Part shown: positions 2,382 through 52,750 of the stretch, in pieces | Numbering within the stretch: the stretch's first letter is position 1 | Layout of the letters: each line of letters begins with the position of its first letter | Origin: Hexactinellida sp. DTS-2022 | Taxonomy: Eukaryota; Porifera; Hexactinellida | DNA length: 64,000 nucleotides | NCBI GenBank assembly: GCA_028753945.1 | Contig: JAPNXP010000015.1 | Span: forward strand, 1,984,001 to 2,048,000 | Direction: 5' to 3' | Notes under the pieces: model-generated | Told to the model about the DNA's origin: nothing | What the model saw: only the letters and a program-made list of their open reading frames with translations | Databases searched by the model: none | Position numbers and translations under genes: made by a program

Positions 2382-2492
2382 CCAAAATTGCAGCAGTGCT
2401 GACAGCATGTTCCTTTGGAGGCACTATCAATAAACCACCACCAAAATATAGTGCCACCAAAGGAACTTGCGTCGGCACAGCTGCAATTTTGG
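2382..2492. repeat. Monomer hairpin H1 (short-arm type)
   Basis: Foldback of about 111 bp, with stem ends CCAAAATTGCAG and CTGCAATTTTGG and a loop rich in ACCACC. Compared with most copies both arms lack one base near GCAGC/GCTGC, and the left arm has GTGCTG where most have GTGCCG. The stem extends outward through A and T runs. Confidence 0.85.
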
Positions 2493-3808
2493 ATTTTTTG
2501 TTTTCTCCGTAGACGGTGCCCTGGCCAGAGCTTTATAGTTGATGGGCTGAAACTTGGCATGTAGTTGCGGAGGGACCGTCTAATTTGCACCTGGGGTCAC
2601 GATTTTTGATTAAGAAATTTTTGACACATCTTTAACACCTTTCAAATTTTGTCTGGTCCATAACTCAAAAATTGTTTTACTAAACCCCCAAATTTTATTT
2701 CATATTTGGATTCACCATAAAATTTTGCGTTTGATGGGATAAGAAAACTTTTAATAAAGAGTTTTATTTCTGCCATAAATGGGGGTTGAAATTTCTTTGT
2801 TTACTCACACTTCAATTTCAGTAAAACTGTGAAATCTAATTCCATTGTTTCAACTTGTAATAATTATATTGATTTAACTTGTTAAATCTTTCACTATTGT
2901 TTTAACTTGCGATAATTAAATTGATTCAACTTATAAATTCCAGCTGGCTTCTATTTAATTGTAGCATTACTATACAATGGATTAAATTAAATTAATTTAT
3001 ATAAGGAATTTGTTGACTTTACTCAACTCACCGTGGATAACATTGCTAAAATAAATAACTAATAATTTAATTTATTATCAATAAGTAATGAATGAATGGC
3101 ATTAAACTAAAGATGGTTTATGATAGAACCGTTAAAATTTTACATTCCACAACAACGACAGATTAAGTGATTATATTTATTTCGGCGAGAATATTCTTTT
3201 TGCACAATTAATGTACTGACGTAATTTATTATAATTAATTCCTTTTGTATTTAACTTATAGAATTTTCCAATTGGATTATTGGGGTTATCGAGTGCGCTG
3301 AATTCAAATATGATAGTGAAATTCGATTTAAATTAATAATAATTGCAAATAATTGAACTTAATTTATTTTGCTGTACATAATAATGTTGTTAAATTATTA
3401 ATTTATTAATTAAATATTTATACTAATTAGCTAAATTTCATTAATCTCAGAGATGATACAAGATAGAAACAAACTTTCAATTTATCAATTGGTCCTTATG
3501 CCACGTACCACCTATACAAGTGGGTCTTGACACCATGAGGTGATGATGACATCGTCAAAAAAATGTATTTTTACAATTTTGTGAATTAAATAATTCGCAT
3601 GGGTTGGTTGGAGTTGGGTGAATACCCAACACGGACTTTAAAAATGCTGAGTCATCACAGATTATATTCTACTGAAACTTGAATATCTCTCAAATGAAGT
3701 GAGCCAAATGGAAACTTCCACCACTCTAAGGGTCGTTGCCTACTGAAACACCTTTCTGTAATAATTATTTAACACCTTCATAGTGATGATGACTAGGCGA
3801 AAAAAAAT

Positions 3809-3920
3809 CCAAAATTGCAGCTTGTGCCGACAGCATGTTCCTTTGGAGGCACTATCAATAAACCACCACCAAAATATAGTGCCACCTAAGGACATGCGTC
3901 GGCACAGGGTGCATTTTTGG
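3809..3920. repeat. Monomer hairpin H2
   Basis: Same foldback, diverged in its right arm (GGGTGCATTTTTGG). It is followed by a TTA microsatellite and the GTAGCAGGTGCCCTGGCC variant of the next block. Confidence 0.8.
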
Positions 3921-5239
3921 ATTTTATTATTATTATTATTTCTCCGTAGCAGGTGCCCTGGCCACACCTGTATACATAGAGGGCTGAAACTTGGCATGTA
4001 GATTCGGAGTCGACGTCTAATTTGCACCTGGGGTTACGATTTTGTATTAACAAATTTTTGACACATCTTTAACACCTTTCAAACTTTGTCTGGTCCATAA
4101 CTCAAAAAATGTTTTACTAAACCCCAAAATTTTATTTCATCATTTGGATTCGCCATAAAATTCTGCGTCTGATGGGAGAAGAAATTTTTCAATAAAGGGG
4201 TCAATTTCTGCCATAAATGGGGGTTGAAATTTCTTTGTTTACTGACACTTCAATTTCAGTAAAGTGTTAAATCTAATTCTATTGTTTCAACTTGTAATAA
4301 TTATATTGATTTAACTTGTTAAATCCTACTCTAGTGATTCAACTTGCGATAATTATATTGATTTAACTTATAAATTCCAGCTGGCTTCTATTTAATTTTA
4401 GTATTACTATACAATTGATTAAATTAAATAATATAATATAGGGAATTTGTTGACTCAACTCAACCAACCATGGATAACATTGCTAAAATAAATAACTAAT
4501 AATATAATTTATTATCAATACATAATGAATGAATGGCATTAAACTAAAGATGGTTTATGATAGAACCGTTAAGATTTTACATTCCACAACAACGACAGAT
4601 TAAGTGATTATATTTATTTCGGCGAGAATATTCTTGCACAATTAATGACTGACTTAATTAATTATAATCAATTCATTTTGTATTTAACTTATAGACGGTT
4701 CCAAATAGATTATTGGGGTTATCGAGTGCGTGGAATTAAAATATTATAGTGAAATTCAATTTAAATTAATAATAATTGCAAATAATTGAACTTAATCTAT
4801 TTTGCTGTATATAATAATGGTGTTAAATAATAAATAAATAAATTAAATATTTATACTAATTAGATAAATTTCATTAATCTCAGAGATGATACAAGATAGA
4901 AACAAACTTTCAATTTATCAATTGGTCCTTATGCCAGGTACCACCTATACAAGTGGGTCTTGACACCTTGAGGTGATTATGACATCGTCAAAAAAATGTA
5001 TTTTTACAATTTTGTTAATTCGATATTTAAAATGGGTTAGTTGATGTTGGGTGATGACCCAACACACACATAAAAAATGCTGAGTCATCAGCTATTATAT
5101 TCTACTCAAACTTGAATATCTCTAAAATTATATGAACTAAATGGAAACTTCCACCACTCTAAGGGTCGATGCCTTCTGTAACACCTTTTTGAAATAATTT
5201 AACACCTTCATAGTGATGATGACATGGCGAAAAAAAAAT

Positions 5240-5352
5240 GCAAAATTGCAGCCTGCGCCGACAGCATGTTCTTTTGGAGGCACTATAAATAAACAACCAA
5301 CAAAATATAGTGCCTCCAAAGGAACATGCGTCGGCACAGGCTGCAATTTTGG
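5240..5352. repeat. Monomer hairpin H3
   Basis: Long-arm type. The loop is altered to AAACAACCAACAAAATA, and an interrupted TTA/TTG microsatellite follows. Confidence 0.8.
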
Positions 5353-6085
5353 ATTTTATTATTATTGTTATTTCTCCGTAGCAGGTGCCCTGGCCACACC
5401 TGTATACATTGAGGGCTGAAAATTGGCATGTAGTTGCGGAGGGACCGTCTAATTTGCACCTGGGGTTACGAATTTTTGTTAAGAAATTTTTGACACATCT
5501 TTAACACCTTTCAAAATTTGTCTGGTCCATAACTCAAAATATGTTTTAATAACCCCAAAATTTTATTTCATATTTAGATTCATCTTAAAATTCTGCGTCT
5601 GATGGGAGAATAAAATTTTTATATATTGGTTTAATTTCTGCCATAAATGGGAGTTGAAATTCCTTTGTTTACTCAACACTTCAATTTCAATAAAACTGTG
5701 AAATCTAATACCATTGTTTCAACTTGTAATAATTATATTGATTTAACTTGTTAAATCTTTCACTATTGTTTCAACTTGCGATAATTAAATTGATTCAACT
5801 TATAAATTCCACTTGGCTTCTATTTAATTGTAGTATTACTATACAATGGATTAAATAAAATATAATAATATATGGAATTTGTTGACTGAACTCAAATCAC
5901 CGTGGATAACATTGCTAAAATAAATAACTAATAATATAATTTATTATCAATACATATTGAATGAATGGCATTAAACTCAAGATGGTTTATGATAGAAACA
6001 AAATTTATCTACCGTTCCTTGGACTCGGACCAAATAACATATGGTTCTTCACACCTTGGGCGTTGATGACTTGGCGAAAAAAAAT

Positions 6086-6198
6086 CCAAAATTGCAGCCT
6101 GTGCCGACAGCATGTTCCTTTGGAGGCACTATCAATAAACCACCACAAAAATATAGTGCCACCAAAGGAACATGCGTCGGCACAGGCTGCAATTTTGG
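6086..6198. repeat. Monomer hairpin H4
   Basis: Long-arm type in a monomer shortened on its left. The usual microsatellite position is occupied by three tandem copies of the 37-bp palindrome. Confidence 0.8.
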
Positions 6199-6207
6199 AT
6201 TTTTTTT

Positions 6208-6386
6208 TACTGTGCCGACTATACTATAGTATAGTGGCCCAGTATTGGTCTTAGTGCTTTGGTTGGTAATTATTATTATTACTGTGCCGACTATACTATA
6301 GTATAGTGGCCCAGTTCTAATCTCAGTGCCTTGGTTAGTTATTATTATTACTGTGCCGACTATACTATAGTATAGTGGCCCAGTTC
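6208..6386 (+). repeat. Three tandem 37-bp palindromes
   Basis: Copies at about 6208-6244, 6280-6316 and 6350-6386, spaced about 70 bp apart by short linkers containing GCCTTGGTTA or GCTTTGGTTGG. All three are in the same orientation and sit exactly where other monomers have a TTA microsatellite. Confidence 0.85.
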
Positions 6387-6775
6387 TTATCTTACTGCCT
6401 TGGTTATTATTATTATTTTCCTTCCGTATCCCCTCCACAGAACAGAGTTATATAACTAAGAGCCCAAATTTTCAGGATATGTGTCTCATAGGTCACAAAT
6501 GTGCACCTGCGGTCACGTTTTTTTAATCACATTTTTTGGCAACATTTTTGCACCTGTTTAATGCTAGAAAAAGAACAATAAATAGTCCGCGAATAACAAA
6601 TTTATATGCATTCGATAGATAATTAAATTCTACACCTTTTCACAGTGCACGAATTTTTAATTTGGGTTTCGTTAGTGCCAGAATAGAGTTGCAAATTTCC
6701 TTTGTTTACTAACACTTCAGTTCAATTGAAAGTGTTAAAGCTAATTCTATTGTTTCAACTTGTGATTATTGTATT

Positions 6776-7166
6776 TAGGGCTGAAACGAATATTCGAAAT
6801 GTAACGAACGAACCTTTTTCTAAACGAACGAATATTCGAATATTCGTTCGTTTGGATGACTAAGCATTAAATCAATTTCTAGAGACAAAATACATTGGAA
6901 AATAGGTTTTTGATAATGTTACAATGGTATAATAATAGTTACGAAGTGTATTATACACAAGTTAACTAATAATCAGCTAGTTTAAGTGGGAATTTATATT
7001 TACGATATCTCTAAGCTATACAAAAGTCTTGTTGTTGTCCAAAATTAGTCAACGAATATCCGTTTCAATCTAGTATTCGTCCAAACGAATATTCGTTTCG
7101 TAACGAATATTCGTTCAATCATTTCGAACGAATATTCGAATATTCGGTATATTCGTTTCAGCCCTA
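6776..7166. mobile_element. hAT-type MITE, TAGGGCTGAAACGAATA ends
   Basis: A 391-bp element with inverted termini TAGGGCTGAAACG and CGTTTCAGCCCTA. Its subterminal regions are saturated with GAATATTCG. It is flanked by an exact 8-bp duplication ATTGTATT (6768-6775 and 7167-7174). The related empty site GATTATTGTATTGATTC survives in another monomer near 14,135-14,152. A second copy in opposite orientation lies at 58,752-59,122. Confidence 0.9.
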
Positions 7167-7895
7167 ATTGTATTGATTCAACTTGTGAGATCGAGTAGGC
7201 TTCTATTTTCTAATTGAAAACTAAGATTCTACATTCCATAACAACGACAGATTATGTGATTATATTTATTTCTGCTTCGAATATTCGTGCACAATGGATA
7301 CATGACAAATTTAATTCTAATTAATTCGCTCTGTGTTTAACTTATAGAGATGGTTCCAAATAGATTAGTGGGGTTATCGAGTACGCTGAATTCAAATATG
7401 ATAGTGAAATTCAATTTAGATTAATAATACTTACAAATAATTGAACTTAATTTATTTTGATGACCATAATATTGGTGTTAAATTATTAATAGATTAATTA
7501 AATATTATACTAATTATCTAAATTTCATTAATCTCAGAAATGATATAAGATGGGAACAAACTTCCAATTTATCAATTGATCCTTATGCCACGTAACACCT
7601 CTACCAATGGGTCTTGACACCTTGAAGTGATGATGACATCGTCAAAAAAATGTGTTTTTACAATTTTGTTAATTCGATATTTAAAATGGGTTAGTTGATG
7701 TTGAGTGATGACCCAACACTCACATAAAAAATGCTGAGTCATCAGCTATTATATTCTACTCAAACTTGAATATCTCTAAAATGAAGTGAGCTAAATGGAA
7801 ACTTCCACCACTCTAAGGGTCGATGCCTTCTGAAACACCTTTTTGGAATAATTTAACACATTCATAGTGATGATGACATGGCGAAAAAAAATAAT

Positions 7896-8008
7896 CCAAA
7901 ATTGCAGCCAGTGCCGACAGCATGTTCCTTTGGAGGCACTATCAATAAACCACCACCAAAATATAGTGCCACCAAAGGAACATGCGTCGGCACAGGCTGC
8001 AATTTTGG
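7896..8008. repeat. Monomer hairpin H5
   Basis: Long-arm type (left arm GCAGCCAGTGCCGAC). It is followed directly by the CTCCCCAGTACAGAG variant of the right-hand block with almost no microsatellite. Confidence 0.8.
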
Positions 8009-9088
8009 ATTTTATTAGTCCGTAGCCTCTCCCCAGTACAGAGTATAATTAACTAAGAGCCCAAATTTTCAGGATAGGTGTCTCATGGGTTACAGATGTG
8101 CACCTGGGGTCACGATTTTTTATTACATTTTTTTGGACACATTTTTACACCTGTTTAATATTTGAAAAAGAACAATAAATAGTGCGGGAATATTTAATTT
8201 ATATGCATTCGATAGAGAATTAAATTCTACACCTTTTCACAGTGCACGAATTTTTAAATTGTGTTTCGTTTGTGCCACAATTGAGTTGCAAGTTTCCTTT
8301 GTTTACTAACACTTCAGTTCAATTGAAAGTGTTAAATCTAATTCTATTGTTTCAACTCGTTATTATATATTGATTCAACTTGTGAGATCGAGTAGGCTTC
8401 AATTTTCCAATTGAAAAAAAATGATTAAATATTTCACAACGACAGATTATGTGATTATATTTACTTCTGCGAGAATATTATTGCACTGTTAATATACTGA
8501 CGTAATTAATTATAATTAATTCAGTCAGTATATTACTTATATAGATGCTTATAATTTGTTTATTAGGGGTTATCGAGAGTGCGGAAATGAAATTTGATAA
8601 CCAAATTAATTAATTAATTATTCATGACAAAATAATTTAACTTAATAATTGTAAGTTGACATTGAAATTGGTGTTAAATTATAAATAATATTAATTATTA
8701 TTTATACTAATTAATTAAATATCATAAATCTCAGAGATGATACAAGATAGAAACAAACTTCCAATTTATCAATTGGGCCTTATGTTACGTAACACCTATA
8801 CAAGTGGGTCTTGACACCTTGAGGTGATGATGACATCGTCAAAAAAATGTGTTTTCCAATTTTGTGAATTCTATATTTCGAACGGGTTGGTTGGTGTTAG
8901 GGGATCACACAACAAGCATATAAAAAATGCTGACTCATCACTTATTATATTCTACTGAAATTGAATATCTTTTAAATGAAGTGAGCTAAAACGAAACTTC
9001 CAACTCACTAAGGGTCATTGCATTTTGAAACCCCTTTCTTAAATAATTTAACACCTTCATAGTGATGACGACTTGTCGAAAAAAAAAT

Positions 9089-9201
9089 CCAAAATTGCAG
9101 CCTGTGCCGACAGGATGTTCCCTTGGAGGCACTATCAATAAACCACCACCAAAATATAGTGCCACCAAAGGAACATGCGTCGGCACAGGCTGCAATTTTG
9201 G
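9089..9201. repeat. Monomer hairpin H6
   Basis: Long-arm type. The left arm carries GACAGGATGTTCCC in place of GACAGCATGTTCC. The right-hand block is the ACGGTGCC variant. Confidence 0.8.
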
Positions 9202-9936
9202 ATTTTTTTATTTTTTCTCCGTAGACGGTGCCTTGGCCAGAGCTTTATAGTTGATGGGCTTAAACTTGGCAAGTAGGTGCGATGGGACCGTCTAATTTGC
9301 ACCTGGGGTTACGATTTTTTATTAAGAAATTTTTGACACATCTTTAACACCTTTCAAATTTTGTCTGGTCCATAACTCAAAAATTGTTTTACTAAACCCC
9401 CAATTTTTATTTCACATTTGGATTCACCATAAAATTCTGCGTCTGATGGGAGAAGAAATTTTCCAATAAAGGGGTCAATTTCTGCCATAAATGGGGGTTG
9501 AAACTTCTTTGTTGACTCACACTTCAATTTCAGTAAAGTGTTAAATCTAATTCTATTGTTTCAACTTGTAATAATTATATTGATTTAACTTGTTAAATCC
9601 TACTCTAGTGATTCAACCTGCGATAATTATATTGATTTAACTTATAAATTCCAGCTGGCTTCTATTTAATTGTAGTATTACTATACAATTGATTAAATAA
9701 AATAATATAATATAAGGAATTTGTTGACTCAACTCAACCAACTATGGATAACATTGCTAAAATAAATAACTAATAATATAATTTATTATCAATACATAAT
9801 GAATGAATGGCATTAAACTCTTGATGGTTTATGATAGAAACTAACTTTCAAATTAATCTACCATTCCTTGTGACTCGGACCAATTAACAAATGATTCTTG
9901 AAACCTTGAGGCGTTGATGACTTGGCGAAACAAAAT

Positions 9937-10049
9937 CAAAAATTGCAGCCTGTGCCGACAGCATGAACCTTTTGAGGCACTATCAATAAACCACAAACAA
10001 AATATAGTGCCACCAAAGAAACATGCGTCGGCACAGGCTGCAATTTTGG
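9937..10049. repeat. Monomer hairpin H7
   Basis: Long-arm type in an ~850-bp truncated monomer, the spacing from H6 being about 848 bp. It has a poly-T tract in place of the microsatellite. Confidence 0.8.
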
Positions 10050-10783
10050 ATTATTTTTTTTTTTTCTCCGTAGACGGTGCACTGGCCAGAGCTTTATAGT
10101 TGATGGGCTGAAACTTGGCATGTAGGTGCGATGGGACCGTCTAATTTGCACCTGGGTTACGATTTTTGATTACCAAATTTTTGCCACATCTTTAACACCT
10201 TTCAAAATTTGTCTGGTCCATAACTCAAAAAATATTACTAAACCCCCAAATTTTATTTCACATTTGGATTCACCATAAAATTCTGCGTCTGATGGGAGAA
10301 GAAAACTTTTACAAAGAGTTTTATTTCTGCCATAAATGGGGGTTGAAATTTCTTTGTTTACTCACACTTCAATTTCAGTAAAACTGTGAAATCTAATTCC
10401 ATTGTTTCAACTTGTAATAATTATATTGATTTAACTTGTTAAATCCTACTCTATTGTTTCAACTTTGCTCTAATTATATTGATTTAACTTAGAAATTGCA
10501 GCTGGCTTCTATTTAATTGTAGTATTACTATTTATTGAATTAAAACAAATTAAATTTAATACGAAATTTGTTGACTTAATTCAACTCAACCGTGGATCAC
10601 ATTGCTAAAATAAATAACAAATAATATAATTTATTATCAATACATAATGGATTAATGGCATTAAACTCAAGATGGTTTATGATATAAATAAACTTCAAAT
10701 TTATCTACCGTTCCTTGTGACTCGGACCGATTAACAAATGGTTCTTGACTCCTTGAGGCGTTGATTACTTGGCGAAAAAAAAT

Positions 10784-10896
10784 CCAAAATTGCTGCCTGC
10801 GCCGACAGCATGTACCTTTGGAGGCACTATCAATAAACCACCAACAAAATATAGTGCCACCAAAGGAACATGCCTCGGCACAGGCTGCAATTTTGG
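10784..10896. repeat. Monomer hairpin H8
   Basis: Long-arm type with GCTGCCTGCGCCGAC in the left arm. It is followed by (TTA)n and a GTATACGGTGCCC block. Spacing from H7 is about 847 bp, so the truncated monomer is itself tandemly repeated. Confidence 0.8.
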
Positions 10897-12156
10897 ATTT
10901 TATTATTATTATTATTATTATTTTCTCCGTATACGGTGCCCTGGCCAGAGCTTTATAGTTGATGGGCTTAAACTTGGCATGTAGGTGCGGAGTGCCCTTC
11001 TAATTTGCACCTGGGGTTACGATTTTTGATTAACAAATTTTGGACACATCTTTAACACCTTTCAATATTTGTCTGGTCCATAACTCAAAAGATGTTTTAT
11101 TAAACCCCCAATTTTTATTTCATATTTGGATTCACCATAAAATTCAGCGTCTGATGGGAGAAGAAACTTTTCAATAAAGTGTTTGATTTCTGCCATAAAT
11201 GGTGGTTGAAATTTCTTTGTTTTCTCACACTTCAATTTCAGTAAAACTGTGAGACTTGCGATAATTAAATTGATTCAACTTATAAATTCCAGCTGGCTTC
11301 TATTTAATTGTAGCATTACTATACAATGGATTAAATTAAATTAATTTATATATGGAATTTTGTTGACTTTACTCAACTCACCGTGGATAACATTGCTAAA
11401 ATAAATAACTAATAATTTAATTTTTATCAATTAGTAATGAATGAATGGCATTAAACTAAAGATGGTTTATGATAGAACCGTTAAGATTTTGCATTCCACA
11501 ACAACGACAGATTAAGTGATTATATTTATTTCGGCGAGAATATTCTTGCACAATTAATGTACTGACGTAATTAATTATAATTAATTCCTTTTGTATTTAA
11601 CTTATAGAAGTTTCCAATTGGATTATTGCGGTTATCGAGTGCGCTGAATTCAAATATGATAGTGAAATTCGATTTAAATTAATAATAAGTGCAAATAATT
11701 GAACTTTATTTATTTTGCTGTACATAATAATGGTGTTAAATTATTAATTTATTAATTAAATATTTATACTAATTAGCTAAATTTCATTAATCTCATAGAT
11801 GATAGAAGATAGAAACAAACTTTCAATTTATCAATTGGTCCTTATGCCACGTACCACCTATACAAGTGGGTCTTGACACCTTGAGGTGATGATGACATCG
11901 TCAAAAAAATGTATTTTTACAATTTTGTGAATTCTATATTTCGAACGGGTTGAGTTGGTTGGAGTTGGGTAAACACCCAACACGCACTTAAAAAATGCTG
12001 AGTCATCACAGATTATTTTCCACTGAAACTTGAATATCTCTCAAATGAAGTGAGCTAAATGCAAACTTCCAACTCATTAAGGGTCGTTGCCTTTTGAAAC
12101 ACCTTTCTGAAATAATTCTACACCTTCATAGTGATGATGACTTGGCGAAAAAAAAT

Positions 12157-12268
12157 CCAAAATTGCAGCCTGCGCCGACATCATGTTCCTTTGGAGGCAC
12201 TATCAATAAACCACCAACAAAATATAGTGCCACCAAGGAACATGCGTCGGCACAGGCTGCAATTTTGG
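12157..12268. repeat. Monomer hairpin H9
   Basis: Long-arm type. The left arm reads GACATCATG. It is followed by (TTA)n and the CCACAGAACAGAG variant block, which then passes back into the standard GGGGTTACG region. Confidence 0.8.
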
Positions 12269-13594
12269 ATTTATATTATTATTATTATTATTCTTCCGTA
12301 GCCACTCCACAGAACAGAGTTTAATTAACTAAGAGCCCAAATTTCAGGATATGTGTATCATGGGTTACAGATGTGCACCTGGGGTTACGATATTGTATTA
12401 ACTAATTTTGGACACATCTTTGACACCTTTCAAAATTTGTCTGATCCATAACTCAAAAGATGTTTTACTAAACCCCAAAATTTTATTTCATATTTGGATT
12501 CACCATAAAATTCTGCGTCTGATGGGTGAAGAAAATTTTCAATAAATGGTTTAATTTCTGCCATAAATGGGGGTTGAAATTTCTTTGTTTACTCACACTT
12601 CAATTTCAGTAAAAGTGTTAAATCTAATTCCATTGTTTCAACTTGTAATAATTAATTATATTGATTTAACTTGTTAAATCCTACTCTAGTGATTCAACTT
12701 GCGATAATTAAATTGATTAACTTATAAATTCCAGCTGGCTTCTATTTATTGTAGTATTACGATACAATGGATTAAATAAAATATAATAATACGTGTATAA
12801 GGAATTTGTTGACTCCACTCATTCACCGTGGATAACATTGCGAAAATAAATACCTAATAATTAATTTATTATCAATAAGTATTGAATGAATTGGATTAAA
12901 CTAAAGATTGTTTATGATAGAACCGTTAAGATTTTACATTCCACAACAACGACAGATTAAGTGATTATATATATTTCGGCGAGAATATTCTTGCACAATT
13001 AATGTACTGAAGTAATTAATTATAATTAATACCTTTTGTATTTAACTTATAGAGGTTCCAATTGGATTATTGGGGTTATCGCGTGCGTGGAATTCATAAA
13101 TTATAGTGAAATTCAATTTAAATTACTAATAATTGCAAATAGTTGAACTTAATTTATTTTGCTGGATATAATAATGGAGTATAATAATTAATAAATTAAT
13201 TAAATATTTATACTAATTGGCTAAATTTCATTAATCTCAGAGATGATTCAAGATAGAAACAAACTTTCAATTTATCAATTGGTCCTTATGCCAGGTACCA
13301 CCTATACAAGTGGGTCTTGACACCTTGAGGTGGTTATGACATCGTCAAAAAAATGTATTTTACAATTTTGTGAATTACATAATTCGCATGTGTTGGTTGG
13401 AGTTGGGTGAATACCCAACACGCACCTAAAAAATGCTGACTCAGCACATATTATATTCTACTGAAACTTGAATATCTCTCAAATGAAGTGAGAAAGATGG
13501 AAACTTCTACCACTCTAAGGGTCGTAGCCTTCTGAAACACCTTTCTGAAATAATTTAACACCTTTATAGTGATGATGACTTGGCGAAAAAAAAT

Positions 13595-13706
13595 CCAAAA
13601 TTGCAGCCTGTGCCGACAGCATGTTCCATTGGAGGCACTATCAATAAACCAACAACAAAATATAGTGCCACCAAAGGAACATGCGTCGGCACAGGCTGCA
13701 ATTTTG
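13595..13706. repeat. Monomer hairpin H10
   Basis: Long-arm type. The terminal GG of the right arm is replaced by the start of a (TTG)n tract, which is followed by a 37-bp palindrome at 13,723-13,759. Confidence 0.8.
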
Positions 13707-13722
13707 TTATTGTTGTTGTTGT

Positions 13723-13759
13723 TACTGTGCCGACTATACTATAGTATAGTGGCCCAGTA
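13723..13759 (+). repeat. 37-bp palindromic repeat
   Basis: Single copy at the microsatellite position of the last block I monomer. It is followed by the same GTATTGGTCTTAGTGC linker as the copy at 6208. Confidence 0.85.
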
Positions 13760-15665
13760 TTGGTCTTAGTGCTTTGGTTGGTAATTATTATCCTTCCGTA
13801 TCCTCTCCACAGAACAGAGTTTTATTAACTAAGAGCCCAAATTTTCAGGATATGTGTCTCATGGGTTACAGATGTGCACCTGGGGTCAGGATTTTTGATT
13901 ACATTTTTTTGGCCACATTTTTGCACCTGTTTAATGCTAGAAAAAGAACAATAAATAGTCCGCGAATAAATAATTTATATGCATTCGATAGATAATTAAA
14001 TTCTACACCTTTTCACAGTGCACGAATTTTTTAATTGGGTTTCGTTAGTGCCAGAATAGAGTTACAAATTTCCTTTGTTTACTAACACTGAGTTCAATTG
14101 AAAGTGTTAAAGCTAATTCTATTGTTTCAACTTGTGATTATTGTATTGATTCAACTTGTGAGATCGAGTAGGCTTCTATTTTCTAATTGAAAACTAAGAT
14201 TTTACATTCCATAACAACGACAGATTATGTGATTATATTTACTTCTCCGTGAATATTCTTACACAATGGATACATCACATAATTAATTCTAATTAATTCG
14301 CTCTGTGTTTAACTTATAGAGACGGTTCCAATTAGATTATTGGGGTTATCGAGTGCGCTGAATTCAAATATTATAATGAAATTAAATTAAAATTAATAAT
14401 AATTGCAAATAATTGAACTTCATTTATTTTGTTGTACCATAGATGACTCAATATAAGGATTAACCATTGACCTTGATAACCCAACCAGGGATAAGTTCGA
14501 AGGCCATTTTATTATCAAACCACAAGAAAGTTATGTAATTTATATTTAATATCTACCCATTAGTATTAATAACGCTAGTAGCTTGAAATACTAATACTTA
14601 GAATTGTTTATATTGGATTTAATTTACGTAGTAGAAGTGAAATTGCTAGACATTTATTTGTTTTTATTGAATTAGTGTTACTGATTTATATCTTATCTTC
14701 AATCATCTGTAATTAGCATACTAAATTGGAGCTCTGCCTACTTCTATGCCTAACAAATGTTCAGCTCCTGCCTGTAAAGGGAACTACAGTTCGACTGATG
14801 TGCACGTAACCGTGTTCAAACTCCCCAATGAACCGCCTGAACTGAGACAGAAATGGATTAGTGCGCTATATCTAGAAGATATTCACCCAAACACATTTGT
14901 ATGTGAGAAGCATTTTCGTGATGAAGACATCTGTCGTTATTATTCTGTACCTTCTGGGCCTAGTGGATCCATTCAACAAATTCCTCGAAAAGTACCAGTG
15001 CTTCTTAAAGGCGCCATTCCTTGTATCTTACCTGGATGTCCTAAGTATCTTTCAATACCCTCATCGTCTACGTCGAGTAAACGTTTGAAAATGGACTCGA
15101 AAGAAGCTCAGTTTTTTGTTCAGGCAATTCAAGAGAGCCAGCAAACTGCTGAAGTTGCTCAGGAGAGGTTTAGTATAGATACTTTAGACGTATTAAAGGA
15201 AAAGCTTAATCTCAATTCTCTCAACAACTGGTTACTTTGGTCTACCTGTGATAATTTTGTTCATTTCATACTTCCACATATAGAAAATTCTAAGATCACA
15301 ATCCAAGCCAGCCTAACAATTAATTCTCATTTGGGAACCAAAGCTTTTTGCCATAACCAACCTACCCCCCTATCCATCAAATGCTTGACAGATGTACGCC
15401 AAATTGAAGTCCTTCTCAGTGAATGTTACTCATACCTAAATGATGATCATCACACAGATATAGTGCAACATCACATTGATTCAGCGAAAAGCACATTATC
15501 AAGGCAATGGATAATATTGAGAAATTTAGTCTTGATGACACAGAATCAGAGTTAAAAGAGAAAGTTAGCGTTTCTACTTATCTCCCTCGACTCCAATTTA
15601 TTTTATGTCAGATCGAGAATGCCACAGTCGCAAAGAATAGGCGAAGATACAATTTCCTAACGCAG

Positions 15666-36020: not shown

Positions 36021-36115
36021 CCAAAATTGCAGCCTGTGCCGACGCATGTTCCTTTGGTGGTGGTCTATTGATAGTGCCTCCAATGGAAGATGCTGTCGAC
36101 ACAGGCTGCAATTTT
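36021..36115. repeat. Hairpin H15, reversed and outside the monomer
   Basis: Arms CCAAAATTGCAGCCTGTGCC and GACACAGGCTGCAATTTT. The asymmetric extra A of the left arm lies on the opposite side from other copies, so this one is inverted. It adjoins MULE coding sequence rather than monomer DNA. Confidence 0.85.
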
Positions 36116-37056: not shown

Positions 37057-38089
37057 TTGGTCTTAGTGCTTTGGTTGGTAATTATCCTTCCGTATCCTCC
37101 CCACAGAACAGAGTTATATTTACTAAGAACTGAAATTTTCAGGACAGGTGTCTCATGGGTTACAGATGTGCACCTTTAATATTTAAACACGTACAATAAA
37201 TAGTACCCGAATATTCAATTTATATGCATTCGATAGAGAATTAAATTCTACACCTTGTTCGTTAGTGCCACAATTGAGTTACAAATTCCCTTTGTTTACT
37301 AACACTTCAATTCAATTGAAACTTTTGAACGTGTTAAATCTAATTCCATTGTTTCAACTTGTAATAATTATATTGATTCAACTTGTGAGATCGAGTAGGC
37401 TTCTATTTAATAATTGAAACCTAAGATTTTACATTCCACAACAACGACAGATTAAGTGATTATATTTATTTCATGCGAGAATATTATTCCAATGTAAATA
37501 TAATGACGTCATTAATTATAATTAATTCAGTCAGTATATGACTTATAAAGATGCTTCCAATGTGTTTATTAGGGGTTATCGAGTGTGCGGAATTGAAATT
37601 TGATAGCCAAATTAATTAATTAATTATTTATGCAAAATAATTTAACTTAATAAATATAAGTTGACATGGTGCTAAATTATATATAATATTAATAATTATT
37701 TATACTAATTAATTAAATATCATAAATCTCAGAGATCATAGAAGATAGAAACAAACTTTCAATTTATCAATTGGTCCTTATGGCACGTACCACCTATACA
37801 AGTGGGTCTTGACACCTTGAGGCGATGATGACTTCGTTAAAAAAATGTGTTTTTACAATTTTGTTAATTCGATATTTAAAATGGGTTAGTTGATGTTGGG
37901 TGATGACCCAACACTCACATAAAAAATGCTGAGTCATCAGCTATTATATTCTACTCAAACTTGAATATCTCTAAAATGAAGTGAACTAAATGGAAACTTC
38001 CACCACTCTAAGGGTCGATGCCTTCTGAAACACCTTTTTGAAATAATTTAACACCTTCATAATGATGATGACATGGCAAAAAAATAAAT

Positions 38090-38202
38090 CCAAAATTGCA
38101 GCCTGTGCCGACAGCATGTTCCTTTGGAGGCACTATCAATAAACCAACAACAAAATATAGTGCCACCAAAGGAACATGCGTCGGCACAGGCTGCAATTTT
38201 GG
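38090..38202. repeat. Monomer hairpin H16
   Basis: Long-arm type. Loop CCAACAACAAAATA. It is followed at once by a 37-bp palindrome (38,210-38,244). Confidence 0.8.
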
Positions 38203-39362
38203 ATTTTTACTGTGCCGACTATACTATAGTATAGTGGCCCAGTTCTAATCTTACTGCCTTGGTTATGATTATTAGTCCGTAGATCGTCCACAGAACAGAG
38301 TTTCATTAACTAAGAGCCCAAATTTTCAGGATATGTGTCTCATGGGTTACAGATGTGCACCTGGGGTCACGATTTTTTATTACATTTTTTTGGACACATT
38401 TTTAAACCTGTTTAATGTTAGAAAAGTAACAATAAATGGTGCCCAAATATTTAATTTATTTGCATTCGATAGAGAATTAAATTTACACCTTTTCACAATG
38501 CAATAATTTTCAAAATGGGTTTCGTTAGTGCCACAATTGAGTTGCAAATTTCCTTTGTTTACTAACACTTTAGTTCAAATTAAAGTGTTAATTATAATTC
38601 TATTGTTTCAACTTGTAATAATTCTAGTGATTCAACTTGTGAGATCGTGTAGGCTTCTATTTTATAATTGAAAACTAGGATTCTACATTCCATAACAACG
38701 ACAGATTATGTGATTATATTTATTTCTGCTTCGAATGTTCTTGCACAATGGATACATGACAAATTTAATTCTAATTAATTCGCTCTGTGTTTAACTCATA
38801 GAGATGGTTCCAAATTGATTAGTGGGGTTATCGAGTGCGCTGAATTCAAATATAATAGTGAAATTCAATTTAGATTAATAATACGTGCTTACAAATAATT
38901 GAACTCAATTTATTTTGATGACCATAATATTGGTGTTAAATTATCAATAGATTAATTAAATATTATACTAATTATCTAAATTTCATTAATCTCAGAAATG
39001 ATATAAGATGGAAACAAACTTTCAATTTATCAATTAGTCCTTATGGCAACGTGCCACCTATACAAGTGGGTCTTGAGACTCTTGACACCTTGAGGTGATG
39101 ATGACATCGTTAAAAAAATGTGTTTTTACAATTTTGTTAATTCGATATTTAAAATGGGTTAGTTGATGTTGGGTGATGACCCAACACTCACATAAAATAT
39201 GCTGAGTCATCAGCTATTATATTCTACTCAAACTTAAATATCTCTGAAATGAAGTGAACTAAATGGAAACTTCCACCACTCTAAGGGTCGATGCCTTCTG
39301 AAACACCTTTTTGAAATAATTTAACACCTTCATAATGATGATGACATGGCAAAAAAATAAAT

Positions 39363-39475
39363 CCAAAATTGCAGCCTGTGCCGACAGCATGTTCCTTTGG
39401 AGGCACTATCAATAAACCAACAACAAAATATAGTGCCACCAAAGGAACATGCGTCGGCACAGGCTGCAATTTTGG
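39363..39475. repeat. Monomer hairpin H17
   Basis: Copy of H16 produced by the 1,273-bp duplication, with its palindrome at 39,483-39,517. Confidence 0.8.
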
Positions 39476-40635
39476 ATTTTTACTGTGCCGACTATACTAT
39501 AGTATAGTGGCCCAGTTCTAATCTTACTGCCTTGGTTATGATTATTAGTCCGTAGATCGTCCACAGAACAGAGTTTCATTAACTAAGAGCCCAAATTTTC
39601 AGGATATGTGTCTCATGGGTTACAGATGTGCACCTGGGGTCACGATTTTTTATTACATTTTTTTGGACACATTTTTAAACCTGTTTAATGTTAGAAAAGT
39701 AACAATAAATGGTGCCCAAATATTTAATTTATTTGCATTCGATAGAGAATTAAATTTACACCTTTTCACAATGCAATAATTTTCAAAATGGGTTTCGTTA
39801 GTGCCACAATTGAGTTGCAAATTTCCTTTGTTTACTAACACTTTAGTTCAAATTAAAGTGTTAATTATAATTCTATTGTTTCAACTTGTAATAATTCTAG
39901 TGATTCAACTTGTGAGATCGTGTAGGCTTCTATTTTATAATTGAAAACTAGGATTCTACATTCCATAACAACGACAGATTATGTGATTATATTTATTTCT
40001 GCTTCGAATGTTCTTGCACAATGGATACATGACAAATTTAATTCTAATTAATTCGCTCTGTGTTTAACTCATAGAGATGGTTCCAAATTGATTAGTGGGG
40101 TTATCGAGTGCGCTGAATTCAAATATAATAGTGAAATTCAATTTAGATTAATAATACGTGCTTACAAATAATTGAACTCAATTTATTTTGATGACCATAA
40201 TATTGGTGTTAAATTATCAATAGATTAATTAAATATTATACTAATTATCTAAATTTCATTAATCTCAGAAATGATATAAGATGGAAACAAACTTTCAATT
40301 TATCAATTAGTCCTTATGGCAACGTGCCACCTATACAAGTGGGTCTTGAGACTCTTGACACCTTGAGGTGATGATGACATCGTTAAAAAAATGTGTTTTT
40401 ACAATTTTGTTAATTCGATATTTAAAATGGGTTAGTTGATGTTGGGTGATGACCCAACACTCACATAAAATATGCTGAGTCATCAGCTATTATATTCTAC
40501 TCAAACTTAAATATCTCTGAAATGAAGTGAACTAAATGGAAACTTCCACCACTCTAAGGGTCGATGCCTTCTGAAACACCTTTTTGAAATAATTTAACAC
40601 CTTCATAGTGATGATGACATGGCGAAAAAAAAAAT

Positions 40636-40748
40636 CCAAAATTACAGCCTGTGCCGACAGCATGTTCCTTTGGAGGCACTATAAATAAACCACCACCGAA
40701 ATATAGTGCCACCAAAGGAACATGCGTCGGCACAGGCTGCAATTTTGG
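40636..40748. repeat. Monomer hairpin H18
   Basis: Long-arm type with ATTACAGCC in the left arm. It is followed by a (TTA)n tract, not a palindrome, marking where the duplicated unit gives way to a different monomer. Confidence 0.8.
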
Positions 40749-41481
40749 ATTTTATTATTATTATTATTATTATTATTTCTCCGTAGACGGTACCCTGCCC
40801 TCACCTTTATACATTAAGGGCTAATATTTGGCATGTAGGTGTGGAGTGACCGTCTAATTTGCACCTGGGGTTACGATTTCCGTTTAAAATTTCTTAACCC
40901 CTATTTAATCTAATTAAACCTCATAACATTAAATAATAAATAGTGAGCTTGATAAAATTTGCATATTTGGATAGATAATTAAATTCTACACCTTTTCACA
41001 GTGCACGAATTTTCAAATTGGGCTTAATTTGTGCCACAATTGAGTTGAAAATTTCTTTTGTTTACTCACTTCAATTTCAGTAAACTGTTAAATCTAATTC
41101 TATTGTTTCAACTTGTAGCAATTATATTGATTTAACTTGTTAAATCTTACTCTATTGATTCAACTCGCGATAATTATATTGATTCAACTTATAAATTCCA
41201 GCTGGCTTCTATTTAATTGTAGTATTACTATACAATGGATTAAATAAAATCTAATAATATAAGGAATTTATTGACTTTACTCAAATCACCGTGGATAACA
41301 TTGCTAAAATAAATAACTAATAATATAATTTATTATCAATACAAAATGAATGAATGACATTAAACTCAAGATGGTTTGTGATATAAACTAACTTCAAATT
41401 AATCTACCATTCCTTGTGGCTCGGATCAATTAACAAATGGATCATGACACCTTGAGGCGTTGATGCCATGGCGAAAAAAAT

Positions 41482-41592
41482 CCAAAATTGCAGATGTGCT
41501 GACAGCATGTTCCTTTGGAGGCACTTTCAATAAAACACCAACAAGATATAGTGCCACCAAAGGAACATGCGTCGGCACAGCTGCAATTTTGG
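41482..41592. repeat. Monomer hairpin H19 (short-arm type)
   Basis: Left arm GCAGATGTGCTGAC, right arm GGCACAGCTGC, both one base shorter than the common type. The tract that follows is (TTTG)n leading into a different repeat family. Confidence 0.8.
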
Positions 41593-41760
41593 ATTTTTTG
41601 TTTGTTTGTGTGTTTGTTTGTTTGTTTGTTTGTTTGTTTGTTTGTCCAGAATTAATTGGAAAGACTACGAGTCCCAGAAAGCTGAAAATTTGTATACAGG
41701 GGTAATTTTGTACTGCGACAACGATCTATTGGTTTTTGAAGAGAAATATTCACATTTGAA
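41593..41760 (+). repeat. (TTTG)n and AGAAAGCTGAAAATT block
   Basis: A TTTG microsatellite at 41,597-41,645 is followed by TCCAGAATTAATTGGAAAG, ACTACGAGTCCCAGAAAGC and TTGTACTGCGACAACG. The same block follows a GTTTG tract at 43,066-43,200. Confidence 0.8.
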
Positions 41761-42896: not shown

Positions 42897-43050
42897 ATTA
42901 ATGTGATTGCTTTTGGGGAGGGAAAGGCCGCGAAGCGGCCGTTAATTGTATTGCGTAGTGCCTAACACGAACAAACAAAAGTCGCGAAGCGACTTTTGTG
43001 AGAGAGTGATCCGTCGCGAAGCGACCGAGACCGAAGGGCTCGTATATTAA
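42897..43050 (+). repeat. CGCGAAGCG hairpin cluster, copy A
   Basis: Contains GGCCGCGAAGCGGCC, AGTCGCGAAGCGACT and GTCGCGAAGCGACC hairpins and ends CGAAGGGCTCGTAT. The sequence from 43,051 starts a second repeat unit. Confidence 0.8.
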
Positions 43051-44378
43051 AAGAGGAATTGTTGTGTGTTTGTGTGTTTGTTTGTTTGTGTGTTTGTGTG
43101 TTTGTGTGTGTGTTTGTCCAGAATTAATAGGAAAGACTACGAGTCCTAGAAAGCTGAAAATTGGCATGCAGGGGTAACTTTGTACTGCGACAACGTCATA
43201 AACGCACATATTTGGGAATAACTCTTTCAGTTCTTATCCGATTCGGCCACAATTTTAGATAGCAAGACAACATGAAATGAGACACACGTATACCGATTTA
43301 TGGGATTGTGACGTCACGTACGAACTAATTTGGATTCAGCTCTTACATTTTTGATTCAATCGTCAAACAATTTTGTCACGTTATAAAACAGAATGTGTTG
43401 CATGTCTCTAGAAATATTTATAATTTTCGCATTTAATCTGAGCCAGGCAATAACAAAAATGTAACCTACAATTGCTGCCAGTGGCGTCAGGTACTGGGGG
43501 GGCGGGGGGGCTCGCCCCCCCTGTTTTGAAATGAGCCAAAAACCGGGGGGGCCGCCCCCCCAGTTTATTTTCAAAAATTATGCTCACTTTAAAGCTATTT
43601 TGATCGTAGTTTACTCAATGTGCTGTGAATCAATATGCAGTGCGTGATTGCAATACTAGATACTACTGATTATATATTATTTAGTTATGTATTTGAAATG
43701 TATACGTGTAATATAAGCCAATTAACATTATCATAAACAAATTAATGTCATTATCTTATTTTAAGAATTCCTCAAGCTATCTTCACTTAGCTTGAGGAAA
43801 TGCAGACATTGAACGCAGACATGAAGGATTCAAAAGATAATTGATATTTCTATTCATTTTAATTTGTGTATTTGACATATTGAATGAACTAGTACAACGG
43901 CCCGGGTCGGCCCCCCCAGCTTTTTGGTCAACCTGACTCCCCTGATTGCTGCGTCATTGCACATATTGAGGTTTGATGATTTAATCTCACCTACATTATT
44001 TCCGAAATTGCATACTTGATTTAATCCAGTTTGGCTTCCATCAGTTTATTTCTATTCGTGATGTATTTAGCTTACGTCAATCACATAAGCATAATATTAC
44101 TATCAAAGTAATTCAACTATTTACAAACAATTTACTCTATGCTGTTAAAATCCTGGGTTAGTAAATAAGATGAATTAATTAATTAATTACTTGACATACT
44201 GGGGTCCCAAATAGCAGCATACTGAATTGAGTACGTGTAATTTACCAGTCACAGGCTTAACTTATTTAATATGAGTTAGATTTGAGGAGAGTAAGGCCGC
44301 GAAGCGGCCGTTAATTGTTTTGCGTAGTGTCTAATACGAACGAACAAAGGTCGCGAAGCGACCGAGACCGAAGGGCTC
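43051..44378 (+). repeat. Microsatellite-headed repeat unit ending in hairpins
   Basis: Starts after copy A with GTTTG/GTGTTTG tracts (43,066-43,116), then the GCTGAAAATTGGCATG block (43,153), then unique sequence carrying a hAT MITE. It ends in hairpin cluster copy B (44,281-44,378) with the same CGAAGGGCTCGTAT terminus. The right half is repeated in reverse at 63,509-64,000. A head-to-tail arrangement ending in hairpins would suit a Helitron-like element; unproven. Confidence 0.6.
43479..43944. mobile_element. hAT-type MITE, CAGTGGCGTCAGGT ends
   Basis: Exact 8-bp duplication ATTGCTGC (43,471-43,478; 43,945-43,952). Ends CAGTGGCGTCAGGT and, reversed, CAGGGGAGTCAGGT, followed by G- and C-runs. 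The homologous repeat at 63,920-63,945 carries the empty site GCAGCAATTGGAGG. Confidence 0.93.
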
Positions 44379-44404
44379 GTATTAATAAAGGCAGTAAGAT
44401 TAGA

Positions 44405-44440
44405 ACTGGGCCACTATACTATAGTATAGTCGGTACAGTA
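44405..44440 (-). repeat. 37-bp palindromic repeat
   Basis: Single copy with the AAAGGCAGTAAGATTAG linker, lying directly after the terminus of the preceding repeat unit and outside any hairpin monomer. Confidence 0.85.
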
Positions 44441-50790: not shown

Positions 50791-51080
50791 AATCTATTTA
50801 ATATTGATTAATCTTATTTAACATATAAGCTATATTTTTGTAACAGACAGCTTGGCTCTAGCTATCCTACTTTTCTTATTTCAGCAGTTATTGTGTAATT
50901 GGAACCAAAATGCTTCAATGAGAAAACAATATTGAACTTCAAATCTGGAGATTTATATAGATCAATACACTATACTTTGAAATGCGTTGATTTGAAGTTG
51001 ATTTGAGCCTATACTAACTTAGTACATACTATTGCACATTCATTGCGATAAACTTCTCATATAAATCAGTCAAGTAAGCG
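50791..51080. other. AT-rich, no gene recognised
   Basis: Upstream of the hAT remnant. It may contain further decayed hAT sequence. No motif or repeat could be assigned. Confidence 0.4.
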
Positions 51081-51863
51081 ATATCAAGATTTTGTTGCTA
51101 GAACAAGCTGCATTAATTAATTATAAAACCGGCAGAGACATTTTCCTTTTGAAAGCCATCTCACTTCGGTGTGTAGAAGCAGACGTTCGAATTAAAACTG
51201 TGGAATCTAATTCTATTGTTTCAACTTGTAAAATTAAATTGATTCAACTTTTTAGATCAAGTAGGCTTCGATTTTCTAATTGAAAATTAAGATTATATAT
51301 TCCATAACAACCAGTGTATTATATAGCCATTTGTAAATGCGCTCCTAATCCAGGTCTAATCCAATTTTCATACGTCTAAAACACAAATTAATGTTACGGT
51401 ATAGGAAAAGATTCCAATTTTTCGCGCTCCTAATTATTTTTTCTCCAAAAATCATTCTCCAAAAGGAGCGTCTCACGCTCCTGGATAATTCCTTGATAAC
51501 AACGATAAATTAAGATTATATTTCCTTCTGCAAGAATACTCTTAAACTATTTTAATTAATTGTAATTAATTCAGTCTTTATTTGACTTATATAGATGCTT
51601 CCAATTTGTTTATTAGGGGTCATCGAGTGTGCGGAATTGAAATTTTGTTCCAAATTAATTTTAATTACTCTTTATAACAAATAATTAAACTTGTAAATTT
51701 AAGTTGACATTGAAATTGGTGTTAAATTATTAATAATATTAATAGGTATTTATACTAATTTGATAAATAGCATTAATCCGAAAGATGATACAAGATATAA
51801 ACAAACTTCCAATTTATCAATTGATCCTTACACCTTTACAAATGGGTCTCTTGTTGTGATGAT
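51081..51863 (+). repeat. Diverged monomer fragment with GCGCTCCTAAT repeat
   Basis: Monomer landmarks TTCTATTGTTTCAACTTG, GTAGGCTTCGATTTTC and GGTCATCGAGTGTGCGG are present but diverged. A ~180-bp insert at 51,318-51,497 contains ATTTGTAAATGCGCTCCTAA and GGAGCGTCTCACGCTCC. Its relatives, in reverse, are at 53,292-53,465 and 54,483-54,620. Confidence 0.7.
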
Positions 51864-52338
51864 CATAGATGCATTATACGTAACGTATAACGTATATATG
51901 GTGCCATTATACGTTAGGTGAACGTATAATGCCATCATACGTTAGAGGATCATATGGTCAAAACGTATAATCATCATACGACGTATAACGTATAATGATT
52001 TTATACGATTTTCATTATACGTTCATTATACGTTCATTATACGTTACCATACGTTCATTATACGTTCATTATACGTTACCATACGTTCATCATACGTTCA
52101 TTATACGTTACCATACGTTATGTATCGAAGAAACCTGTCTTCCTTAGCATCACTAATAGTCACGTTTTAGTTTTTACTAAATTGACTAAATTCAGTTTCA
52201 TCGTATGATGGTATCATACGTTGGCCATTTGTTATACGTTGATTATACGCTCGAACGTATATATGATCCATTATACGTATATATGATCCATTATACGCTC
52301 CCCGAACGTATAACGTATGATCGTATAATGCATCTATG
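51864..52338. mobile_element. hAT-type MITE built of TATACGTT repeats, copy 2
   Basis: Exact 8-bp duplication GTGATGAT (51,856-51,863; 52,339-52,346). Perfect ends CATAGATGCATTATACG on both sides (reversed). The left half has ATTATACGTTC repeated with ~13-24-bp periods around ATTATACGTTACCATACG. A ~100-bp unique centre lies at 52,098-52,195. Confidence 0.92.
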
Positions 52339-52346
52339 GTGATGAT

Positions 52347-52750
52347 GACATCGTCAAAAAAATGTGCTTTCACAATTTTGTAAATTATATAATTCGAATG
52401 GGTTGGTTGGTGTTGGGTGAACACCCAACACGCGCGCGCGCACATAAAAATGCTGATTCATCACCTATTACATTTATCATTCGACTTAAACTTGAATAAC
52501 TCTGAAATGAAGTGAGCTAAAACGAAACTTCCAACTCAATAAGGGTCGTTGCATTCTGAAAAACCTTTCAAATTTTTTTTAACACCTTCATAGTGATGAT
52601 GACATGGCGAAAAAATCCAAAATTGCAGCTGTGCTGACAGCATTTTCCTTTGGAGGCACTATCAATTAACCAATCAGTAGCCACCAAATGATAGTGCCTC
52701 CAAAGGAACATGCGTCGGCACAGCTGCAATTTTGGATTTTTATATTAGTG
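52347..52750 (+). repeat. Monomer fragment with hairpin
   Basis: The monomer resumes at ATGACATCGTCAAAAAAATG. It includes a (CG)n tract at 52,431-52,441 and ends just after hairpin H20. No right-hand block follows. Confidence 0.8.
52617..52735. repeat. Monomer hairpin H20, most complete stem
   Basis: Here the inner right arm reads TGATAGTGCCTCCAAAGG, so the pairing through CCTTTGGAGGCACTATCA is uninterrupted. Other copies have GTGCCACC and one mismatch. It is the short-arm type (GCAGCTGTGC / GCACAGCTGC). The loop ATTAACCAATCAGTAGCC is unlike all others. Confidence 0.85.

What the first reader, a model, noticed from the sequence alone, without database searches (positions are those of the whole stretch)
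2382..52735. Hairpin satellite with linked arm lengths and a fixed bulge
Twenty hairpin copies occur. In most, both arms are long (GCAGCCTGTGCC with GGCACAGGCTGC). In H1, H19 and H20 both arms are one base shorter (GCAGCWGTGC-like with GCACAGCTGC) and the left arm has GTGCTG. Almost all copies keep the same one-base bulge (GACAGCATG against CATGCGTC) and the same single mismatch. The hairpin seems better preserved than its flanks. This may be subfamily descent, arm-to-arm correction, or selection on a folded RNA such as a small-RNA precursor.
Basis: partly seen in the sequence, partly recalled or inferred. Interest (0 to 1): 0.7.

Follow-up and report, generated by a model that had tools for sequence, protein, structure and literature searches.

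The report
Rolling-circle transposon end forms hairpin satellite
The repeated hairpin is the tail end of an abundant rolling-circle jumping gene (a Helentron and its short derivatives), which piles up in satellite-like arrays, apparently by jumping into itself, and nothing found here makes it a small-RNA gene.

Summary
In detail: 20 hairpins (18 whole, one without its left arm, one split by a later insertion), a bulge kept in most copies, and linked arm lengths within the window. The hairpin is the 3' terminus of a Helentron-type rolling-circle transposon family. A 9.5-kb copy elsewhere in the genome starts with the same 5' palindrome modules, carries Rep, helicase and endonuclease domains, and ends in the same hairpin. 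The window's 846-bp unit is that element with its middle deleted (5' 528 bp at 90%, 3' 368 bp at 87%). About 5,000 loop matches exist genome-wide. Arms diverge less than flanks and, in the window, less than the loop. Arm lengths are linked but not strictly (17 SS, 7 SL, 11 LS, 81 LL, 15 unclear). Arm-to-arm correction occurs in a minority: 17 complementary double changes against 2.8 expected; 4 of 131 copies have the bulge repaired. Arrays look like nested insertions into each other's (TTA)n tract (84 modules, 96 bodies, 98 hairpins, modules stacked at the front): suggestive, not proven (permutation P 0.058). Unusual: hairpin arms near 50 bp that enclose the 3' subterminal repeat. A small-RNA role could not be tested.

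The parts
2379..2495 (+). 3' terminal hairpin H1, short/short arms, GTGCTG left arm
3806..3923 (+). 3' terminal hairpin
5237..5355 (+). 3' terminal hairpin
6083..6201 (+). 3' terminal hairpin, consensus-like; DNA fold -58.1 kcal/mol
7893..8011 (+). 3' terminal hairpin
9086..9204 (+). 3' terminal hairpin
9934..10052 (+). 3' terminal hairpin
10781..10899 (+). 3' terminal hairpin
12154..12271 (+). 3' terminal hairpin
13592..13711 (+). 3' terminal hairpin
19307..19425 (+). 3' terminal hairpin
20160..20278 (+). 3' terminal hairpin
23276..23353 (+). 3' terminal hairpin without left arm
24646..24687 (+). left half of a hairpin split by a nested insertion
28476..28556 (+). right half of the same split hairpin
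36018..36120 (-). 3' terminal hairpin joined to a FLYWCH-element copy at the shared letters GCAATTTT
38087..38205 (+). 3' terminal hairpin
39360..39478 (+). 3' terminal hairpin
40633..40751 (+). 3' terminal hairpin
41479..41595 (+). 3' terminal hairpin H19, short/short; end of the array
52614..52738 (+). 3' terminal hairpin H20, short/short; followed by sequence outside the family
720..754 (-). 5' terminal palindrome module (subterminal repeat ACTGTGCCGAC)
6209..6243 (+). 5' module, stack of three
6281..6315 (+). 5' module, stack of three
6350..6384 (+). 5' module, stack of three
13724..13758 (+). 5' module
29092..29317 (-). stack of four 5' modules
36844..36878 (-). 5' module
36914..36948 (-). 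5' module
36965..36999 (+). 5' module at the start of the complete array
37021..37055 (+). 5' module
38209..38243 (+). 5' module
39482..39516 (+). 5' module
44405..44439 (-). solitary 5' module without body or hairpin
2380..13894 (+). array of non-autonomous elements (10 hairpins, 10 body starts, 4 modules; unit sequence continues at both sides)
36965..41595 (+). complete array (4 modules, 4 bodies, 4 hairpins) inside a host repeat
43045..43175 (+). uninterrupted paralog of the host repeat (empty-site comparison)
9205..10052 (+). 846-bp-type unit (848 bases here): internal-deletion derivative of the Helentron at C1:5536955-5546478

Best explanation
The hairpin is the 3' terminus of a Helentron (endonuclease-carrying rolling-circle transposon) family; the window's units are its non-autonomous derivatives (HINEs). 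Each element reads: T-rich flank, 5' palindrome module with ACTGTGCCGAC, (TTA)n tract, body, hairpin whose right arm carries the inverted GTCGGCACAG, T-run. In the likely mechanism, the partner's Rep/helicase nicks and peels one strand from the 5' end, the long hairpin on the displaced strand signals termination, and the strand is inserted at T-rich DNA. The (TTA)n tract inside older copies is a preferred target, so elements nest in each other and build same-orientation arrays with stacked modules at the front. Shown: shared ends, the coding partner, the deletion-derivative relation, and conservation. Inferred: the termination role (by analogy with Helraiser), the target preference and the nesting. 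Conservation of the arms reflects use as a transposition signal; short and long arms are subfamilies blurred by recombination and occasional template-switch copying of one arm from the other.
For: A 9.5-kb copy (C1:5536955-5546478) has three 5' modules, Rep, PIF1/UvrD helicase and endonuclease domains, and the hairpin in the same orientation about 0.8 kb after the stop. The 846-bp unit is covered by this copy's 5' 528 bp (90%) and 3' 368 bp (87%). Of 6 Rep-bearing copies examined, 4 run into the unit's 3' sequence in the same orientation. The ends match published HINE features. The complete array sits in a host repeat with an uninterrupted paralog. Diversity in the window is 0.084 and 0.049 in the arms against 0.170 in the loop, and arms lie below flanks. 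Modules 84, bodies 96, hairpins 98; adjacent module and body classes agree in 35 of 35.
Against: 2 of the 6 Helentron copies (C2 and C7, nearly identical to each other) did not reach the shared sequence within the 701 bases read, and 2 more (C11, C18) reached it but were cut before the hairpin. Bases 5539401-5543000 of the 9.5-kb copy, with the Rep region, were not fetched; Rep there rests on the genome search. The OTU match is below its cut-off. Last-in-first-out order fits 20 of 22 pairs, but a within-array permutation gives P 0.058 and first-in-first-out fits 16 of 21. Of six complete chains one has 3 modules for 6 hairpins and one 2 for 1. In the larger sample the loop of flank type 1 is hardly more diverse than its left arm (0.069 against 0.065). 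No transposition or expression data.
Confidence: 0.92

Rival explanations
1. Conventional satellite: a 0.85-1.4-kb unit spread by unequal crossing-over; the hairpin is incidental.
For: Head-to-tail arrays; two neighbouring 1273-base units (38206-39478 and 39479-40751) read almost letter for letter alike, so some local duplication does occur.
Against: Single elements with one module, body and hairpin exist (L035, L039); units end at the hairpin next to unrelated sequence in several places; a coding partner shares both ends; total module and hairpin counts are close (84 and 98).
Confidence: 0.04
2. Small-RNA precursor: the hairpin is kept because it is transcribed and diced.
For: Long stable fold; arms less diverse than flanks and, in the window, than the loop; more complementary double changes than shuffles give.
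Against: No Rfam match at the curated cut-offs; 251 of 329 changed cells break a pair on one side and 17 compensate; in three of the four bulge-repaired copies a whole stretch of right arm copies the left, as template switching predicts; transposon-end function is sufficient.
Confidence: 0.03
3. The Helentron genes are unrelated insertions that happened to land in older hairpin units, whose real mobilizer is something else.
For: The place where the coding part meets the shared 3' sequence differs among copies; two of six copies did not reach it in the bases read.
Against: In the 9.5-kb copy shared ends lie outside the gene on both sides in the same orientation, 4 of 6 copies share the 3' part in the same orientation, and the ends have published Helentron features.
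Confidence: 0.05

Closest known systems
HINE / DINE-1 (non-autonomous Helentrons; PMC4067079, passages and section 5 seen)
   Same: Palindromic subterminal repeats, palindromes at both ends, microsatellites in some, T-strings at the ends, T-rich target, partner with Rep/helicase/endonuclease.
   Different: Mite HINEs have a 5-10-bp 3' palindrome apart from the subterminal repeat; here the hairpin has arms near 50 bp that include the repeat.
Cg_HINE of the Pacific oyster (PMC7492417, passages and section 7 seen)
   Same: 5' subterminal repeat with a complementary inverted repeat, then microsatellite; 3' subterminal repeat and palindrome; satellite-like appearance.
   Different: There the tandem repeats lie inside an element and its authors could not relate a partner; here whole elements form the array and a coding partner shares both ends.
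Helraiser / canonical Helitron (PMC4778049, passages seen)
   Same: A hairpin near the 3' end; there it acts as a termination signal.
   Different: Canonical ends are 5' TC and 3' CTRR (CTAG in Helraiser) with a 19-bp palindrome and insertion between A and T; these ends are not present here.

Membership tests
Helentron (autonomous) | Rep and helicase in one element | tested here: met
   PF14214 at C1:5540541 in a 1700-codon frame; PIF1 and UvrD_C_2 in L051 downstream; the stretch between was not read
Helentron (autonomous) | AP-type endonuclease C-terminal to the helicase | tested here: met
   Exo_endo_phos 8.7e-7 and Exo_endo_phos_2 3.5e-7, after the helicase in one frame
Helentron (autonomous) | OTU protease (frequent, not obligatory) | tested here: inconclusive
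   OTU E 0.033, 15.1 bits against a cut-off of 23.3
HINE | Inverted subterminal repeats at the two ends | tested here: met
   ACTGTGCCGAC in the 5' module, GTCGGCACAG in the hairpin's right arm
HINE | 3' palindrome near the end | tested here: met
   118-bp hairpin then T-run; far longer than the 5-10 bp of mite HINEs
HINE | T-rich target, no target duplication | tested here: inconclusive
   Ts at both ends of most copies in the (cut) listings; one paralogous empty site fits, but its exact join lies in a microsatellite
HINE | Shares ends with an autonomous partner | tested here: met
Canonical Helitron | 5' TC and 3' CTRR ends | tested here: not met
   Ends are TTACTGTGCC and GCAATTTTGGATTTT
MITE / TIR transposon | Long terminal inverted repeats at the two outer ends | tested here: not met
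   The long inverted repeat lies wholly at one end; the other end is a different, short palindrome
Small-RNA gene | Discrete small RNAs from the arms | not testable with these tools
   No RNA data; no Rfam match at gathering scores

The most novel reading that the evidence does not exclude
This Helentron makes its own landing pad: new copies insert preferentially into the (TTA)n tract between module and body of older copies, so arrays grow as nested brackets whose module stacks record the order of insertions, while the giant 3' hairpin is kept nearly symmetrical by template-switch copying between its arms. Satellite arrays would then arise by self-targeting transposition rather than unequal crossing-over.
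Probability: 0.5. Interest if true: 0.55.

Novelty: new variant of a known kind. Interest (0 to 1): 0.4.

Why it matters
It turns an unexplained satellite into a transposon with a coding partner in the same genome, may give a readable record of insertion order in satellite-like arrays, and offers thousands of copies of one long inverted repeat in which template-switch correction between arms can be counted. It also warns against reading hairpin covariation in transposon ends as proof of RNA function.

Tried and rejected
Strand domains over megabases: the first listing showed only + copies at 3-8 Mb of C1; later listings show both strands there, so this was an effect of how places are listed. 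SINE-like reading in antisense with an (AAT)n tail: dropped when the coding Helentron with the same ends was found. Whole-genome count of bulge-repaired right arms: the patterns also match left arms read backwards; of the 100 rows listed, 4 carry the right-arm letters. The long-long count is likewise strand-ambiguous and not used. Tree of flanks to separate descent from correction: too few supported branches; left length changes at least 8 and 6 times and right 11 and 12 times in the two flank types, so arm length does not follow the flank tree closely. misread the orientation of 13 loci (140 copies, 133 whole); corrected (136, of which 130 whole). Organism not identified.
Full report
What is in the sequence. 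The window is G000:C7:1984001-2048000 of an unnamed 112.4-Mb genome in 18 contigs. Its content looks eukaryotic: transposon genes with THAP and FLYWCH domains, and reverse-transcriptase and RZ-type zinc-finger matches below their cut-offs. Profile searches find 20 hairpins between 2379 and 52738: 18 whole, one without left arm, one split by a 3.8-kb insertion. The consensus is about 118 bases, with arms near 50 and a 20-base loop. The five copies folded as DNA gave -46 to -58 kcal/mol, z -14 to -19. The loop pattern with up to 2 mismatches occurs 2444 + 2544 times in the genome and not once in the reversed control; at about 1.2 kb per unit this would be some 5% of the genome (my estimate).

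The sample. Beyond the window I had 30 loci of 3 kb around exact loop matches and 20 regions of 10 kb on C1, of which 13 were picked because of listed matches and 7 were not; 1 of those 7 holds hairpins (L046). Removing overlaps gives 136 copies, 130 of them whole. The sample therefore leans to copies with the consensus loop; the window's 18 whole copies are free of that bias.

Arms, loop, flanks. In the window alone, gaps counted as a state, diversity is 0.084 (left arm), 0.170 (loop) and 0.049 (right arm). In 122 of 130 copies with 260 bases upstream, two flank types separate (72 and 45; 5 unclear); gaps left out, within types the arms differ by 0.040-0.065, the loop by 0.069-0.087, and the flanks by 0.087-0.299 depending on the block. 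In type 1 of that biased sample the loop is hardly more diverse than the left arm. So the hairpin is better kept than its flanks, and the outer (right) arm best of all: 124 changes against 223 in the left arm.

Linked arm lengths. Among 131 arm pairs (130 plus one from L052) 17 are short/short, 7 short/long, 11 long/short, 81 long/long and 15 unclear; Fisher P 3e-8 on the 116 clear ones. In the window 17 of 18 can be classed and all are like with like. An exact pattern finds 111 short-left/long-right copies genome-wide; the other three cells could not be counted.

Bulge and correction. 118 of 131 pairs keep the bulge; 6 have a changed left base there, 2 are unclear, 1 is classed as lacking it on both sides, and 4 have it repaired on the right. 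In three of the four (C1:1411510, 3810004, 5497376) the right arm also carries the complement of variants of its own left arm: a rare one in two of them, and in the third the common left-arm T-to-C change, which in 38 other cells stands unpaired. So a stretch of right arm was copied from the left. In the fourth (5504923) the right arm fits another left-arm type. Over 48 pairs and 130 copies there are 17 complementary double changes and 1 non-complementary one, against 2.8 complementary expected and a maximum of 9 in 2000 shuffles. Five of the 17 are one and the same variant in five copies, so they are not all independent events. Against this stand 251 one-sided changes that break a pair and 60 that keep a standard pair. 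This is what occasional template switching between arms predicts; that mechanism is published for RNA hairpins in general (PMC8794818, abstract and opening seen). It does not show selection on an RNA.

What the hairpin ends. Nearly all copies visible in the listing (which was cut) end GCAATTTTGGATT followed by Ts, and then either unrelated sequence or a T/(TTA)n tract and the next body; a few have changed end letters. The other end of the element is a 35-base palindrome, ACTGTGCCGACTATACTATAGTATAGTGGCCCAGT, followed by about 15 bases and (TTA)n, with unrelated sequence directly upstream in several places (listing also cut). Its ACTGTGCCGAC is the inverse of GTCGGCACAG in the hairpin's right arm. 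Palindromic inverted subterminal repeats, a microsatellite, a 3' palindrome and strings of Ts are the published marks of HINE/DINE-1 elements (PMC4067079, passages and section 5; PMC7492417, passages and section 7).

The coding partner. The genome has 151 matches to the Helitron Rep family; 20 of the listed rows, scoring 103-105 bits, have open frames of 1652-1709 codons. At C1:5540541 such a gene lies between hairpins of the same orientation. The pieces read show: end of the preceding hairpin, three modules, (TTA)n, the TCTCCGTAGACGG body start and an open frame from base 1153 (L057); then PIF1-like and UvrD-type helicase, endonuclease and a weak OTU match (L051); the stop at 5545526; and the hairpin at C1:5546358-5546475. 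The 3.6 kb between L057 and L051 were not read. The 848-base unit at 9205-10052 aligns to this copy from base 3 to 530 (90%) and from 481 to 848 (87%): it is the element with its middle removed. Of six Rep-bearing copies whose 3' regions were read, four (C1:5.54, C1:9.2, C11, C18) run into the unit's 3' sequence in the same orientation, at 68-93% identity, two of them (C1:5.54, C1:9.2) through the hairpin itself; the two others (C2 and C7, nearly identical to each other) had not reached it within 701 bases, although C1:9.2 is 98-99% identical to them over its first 445 bases. The 3' ends of this gene family are thus not uniform, and I could not read further.

A filled and an empty site. The array 36965-41595 begins after AAAAGAGGAATTGTT and ends before GTTTGTTTGTG...TCCAGAATTAATTGG; an uninterrupted copy of that repeat lies at 43045-43175. 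The tract is a microsatellite, so the exact letters at the join stay uncertain.

How arrays may form. In the window and L031-L050 there are 84 modules, 96 body starts and 98 hairpins (the split hairpin counted twice), but 57 of the 77 joints from a hairpin to the next body lack a module, while modules stack up to nine deep. If new elements insert into the (TTA)n tract between module and body, modules must pile up at the front and bodies with hairpins behind, with equal totals. Module tails and body starts fall into two classes that agree in 35 of 35 adjacent pairs; pairing stacked modules last-in-first-out with later bodies gives 20 of 22 agreements. First-in-first-out gives 16 of 21, and shuffling modules within arrays gives a mean of 16.9 with P 0.058. 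Of six complete chains four have equal counts (1, 1, 2, 4), one 3:6:6 and one 2:1:1. I regard nesting as likely but unproven. That whole Helitrons can stand in tandem, inner copies often cut at the 3' end, is in print (PMC7492417 passage). I saw no description of stacked modules as an insertion record in the listings; those papers were mostly not opened, so this is no proof of absence.

Mechanism. By analogy with Helraiser, where a 19-base 3' palindrome serves as termination signal and its loss gives more read-through (PMC4778049, passages), the hairpin most likely marks the 3' end for the Rep/helicase. Why it is so long here is unknown; a stem of about 50 pairs may terminate more reliably, which would fit end-to-end packing without captured flanks. 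That step is inference.

Noticed in passing
L057:1153-1380: The Helentron's first open frame has GGIEINPGP near its start, which resembles a 2A-like ribosome-skipping motif (motif recalled; one paper listing, did not settle it).
   Followed up: no
window:24688-28475: A 3.8-kb insertion with long inverted ends (TGTTGCAGGCC...) splits a hairpin, with GAGG on both sides (read by eye).
   Followed up: partly
window:14438-18945: P-element-like transposon (THAP and TNP-like RNase H domains) inside a unit, itself holding a GACCCAT-rich insertion.
   Followed up: partly
window:20573-22401 and 35812-36540: Two copies of a FLYWCH-domain element with 15-base tandem repeats at the ends of the first; the second is joined to a hairpin at eight shared letters, as if by microhomology repair.
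   Followed up: partly
window:54-1264: Large inverted arrangement: a minus-strand body and module next to plus-strand unit sequence, forming a 1.2-kb palindrome.
   Followed up: no
window:44405-44439: A solitary 5' module without body or hairpin, possibly a very short or aborted transposition product.
   Followed up: no
window:55366-61620: Minus-strand exon-like frames of a large protein with an RZ-type zinc finger just under the cut-off (RNF213-like from memory).
   Followed up: no
window:51870-52340: ACGTATA/TTCATTATACG repeats inserted in a unit upstream of the hairpin at 52614.
   Followed up: no
genome: A second, higher-scoring group of Helitron Rep matches with frames up to 1930 codons; its ends were not looked at.
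   Followed up: no
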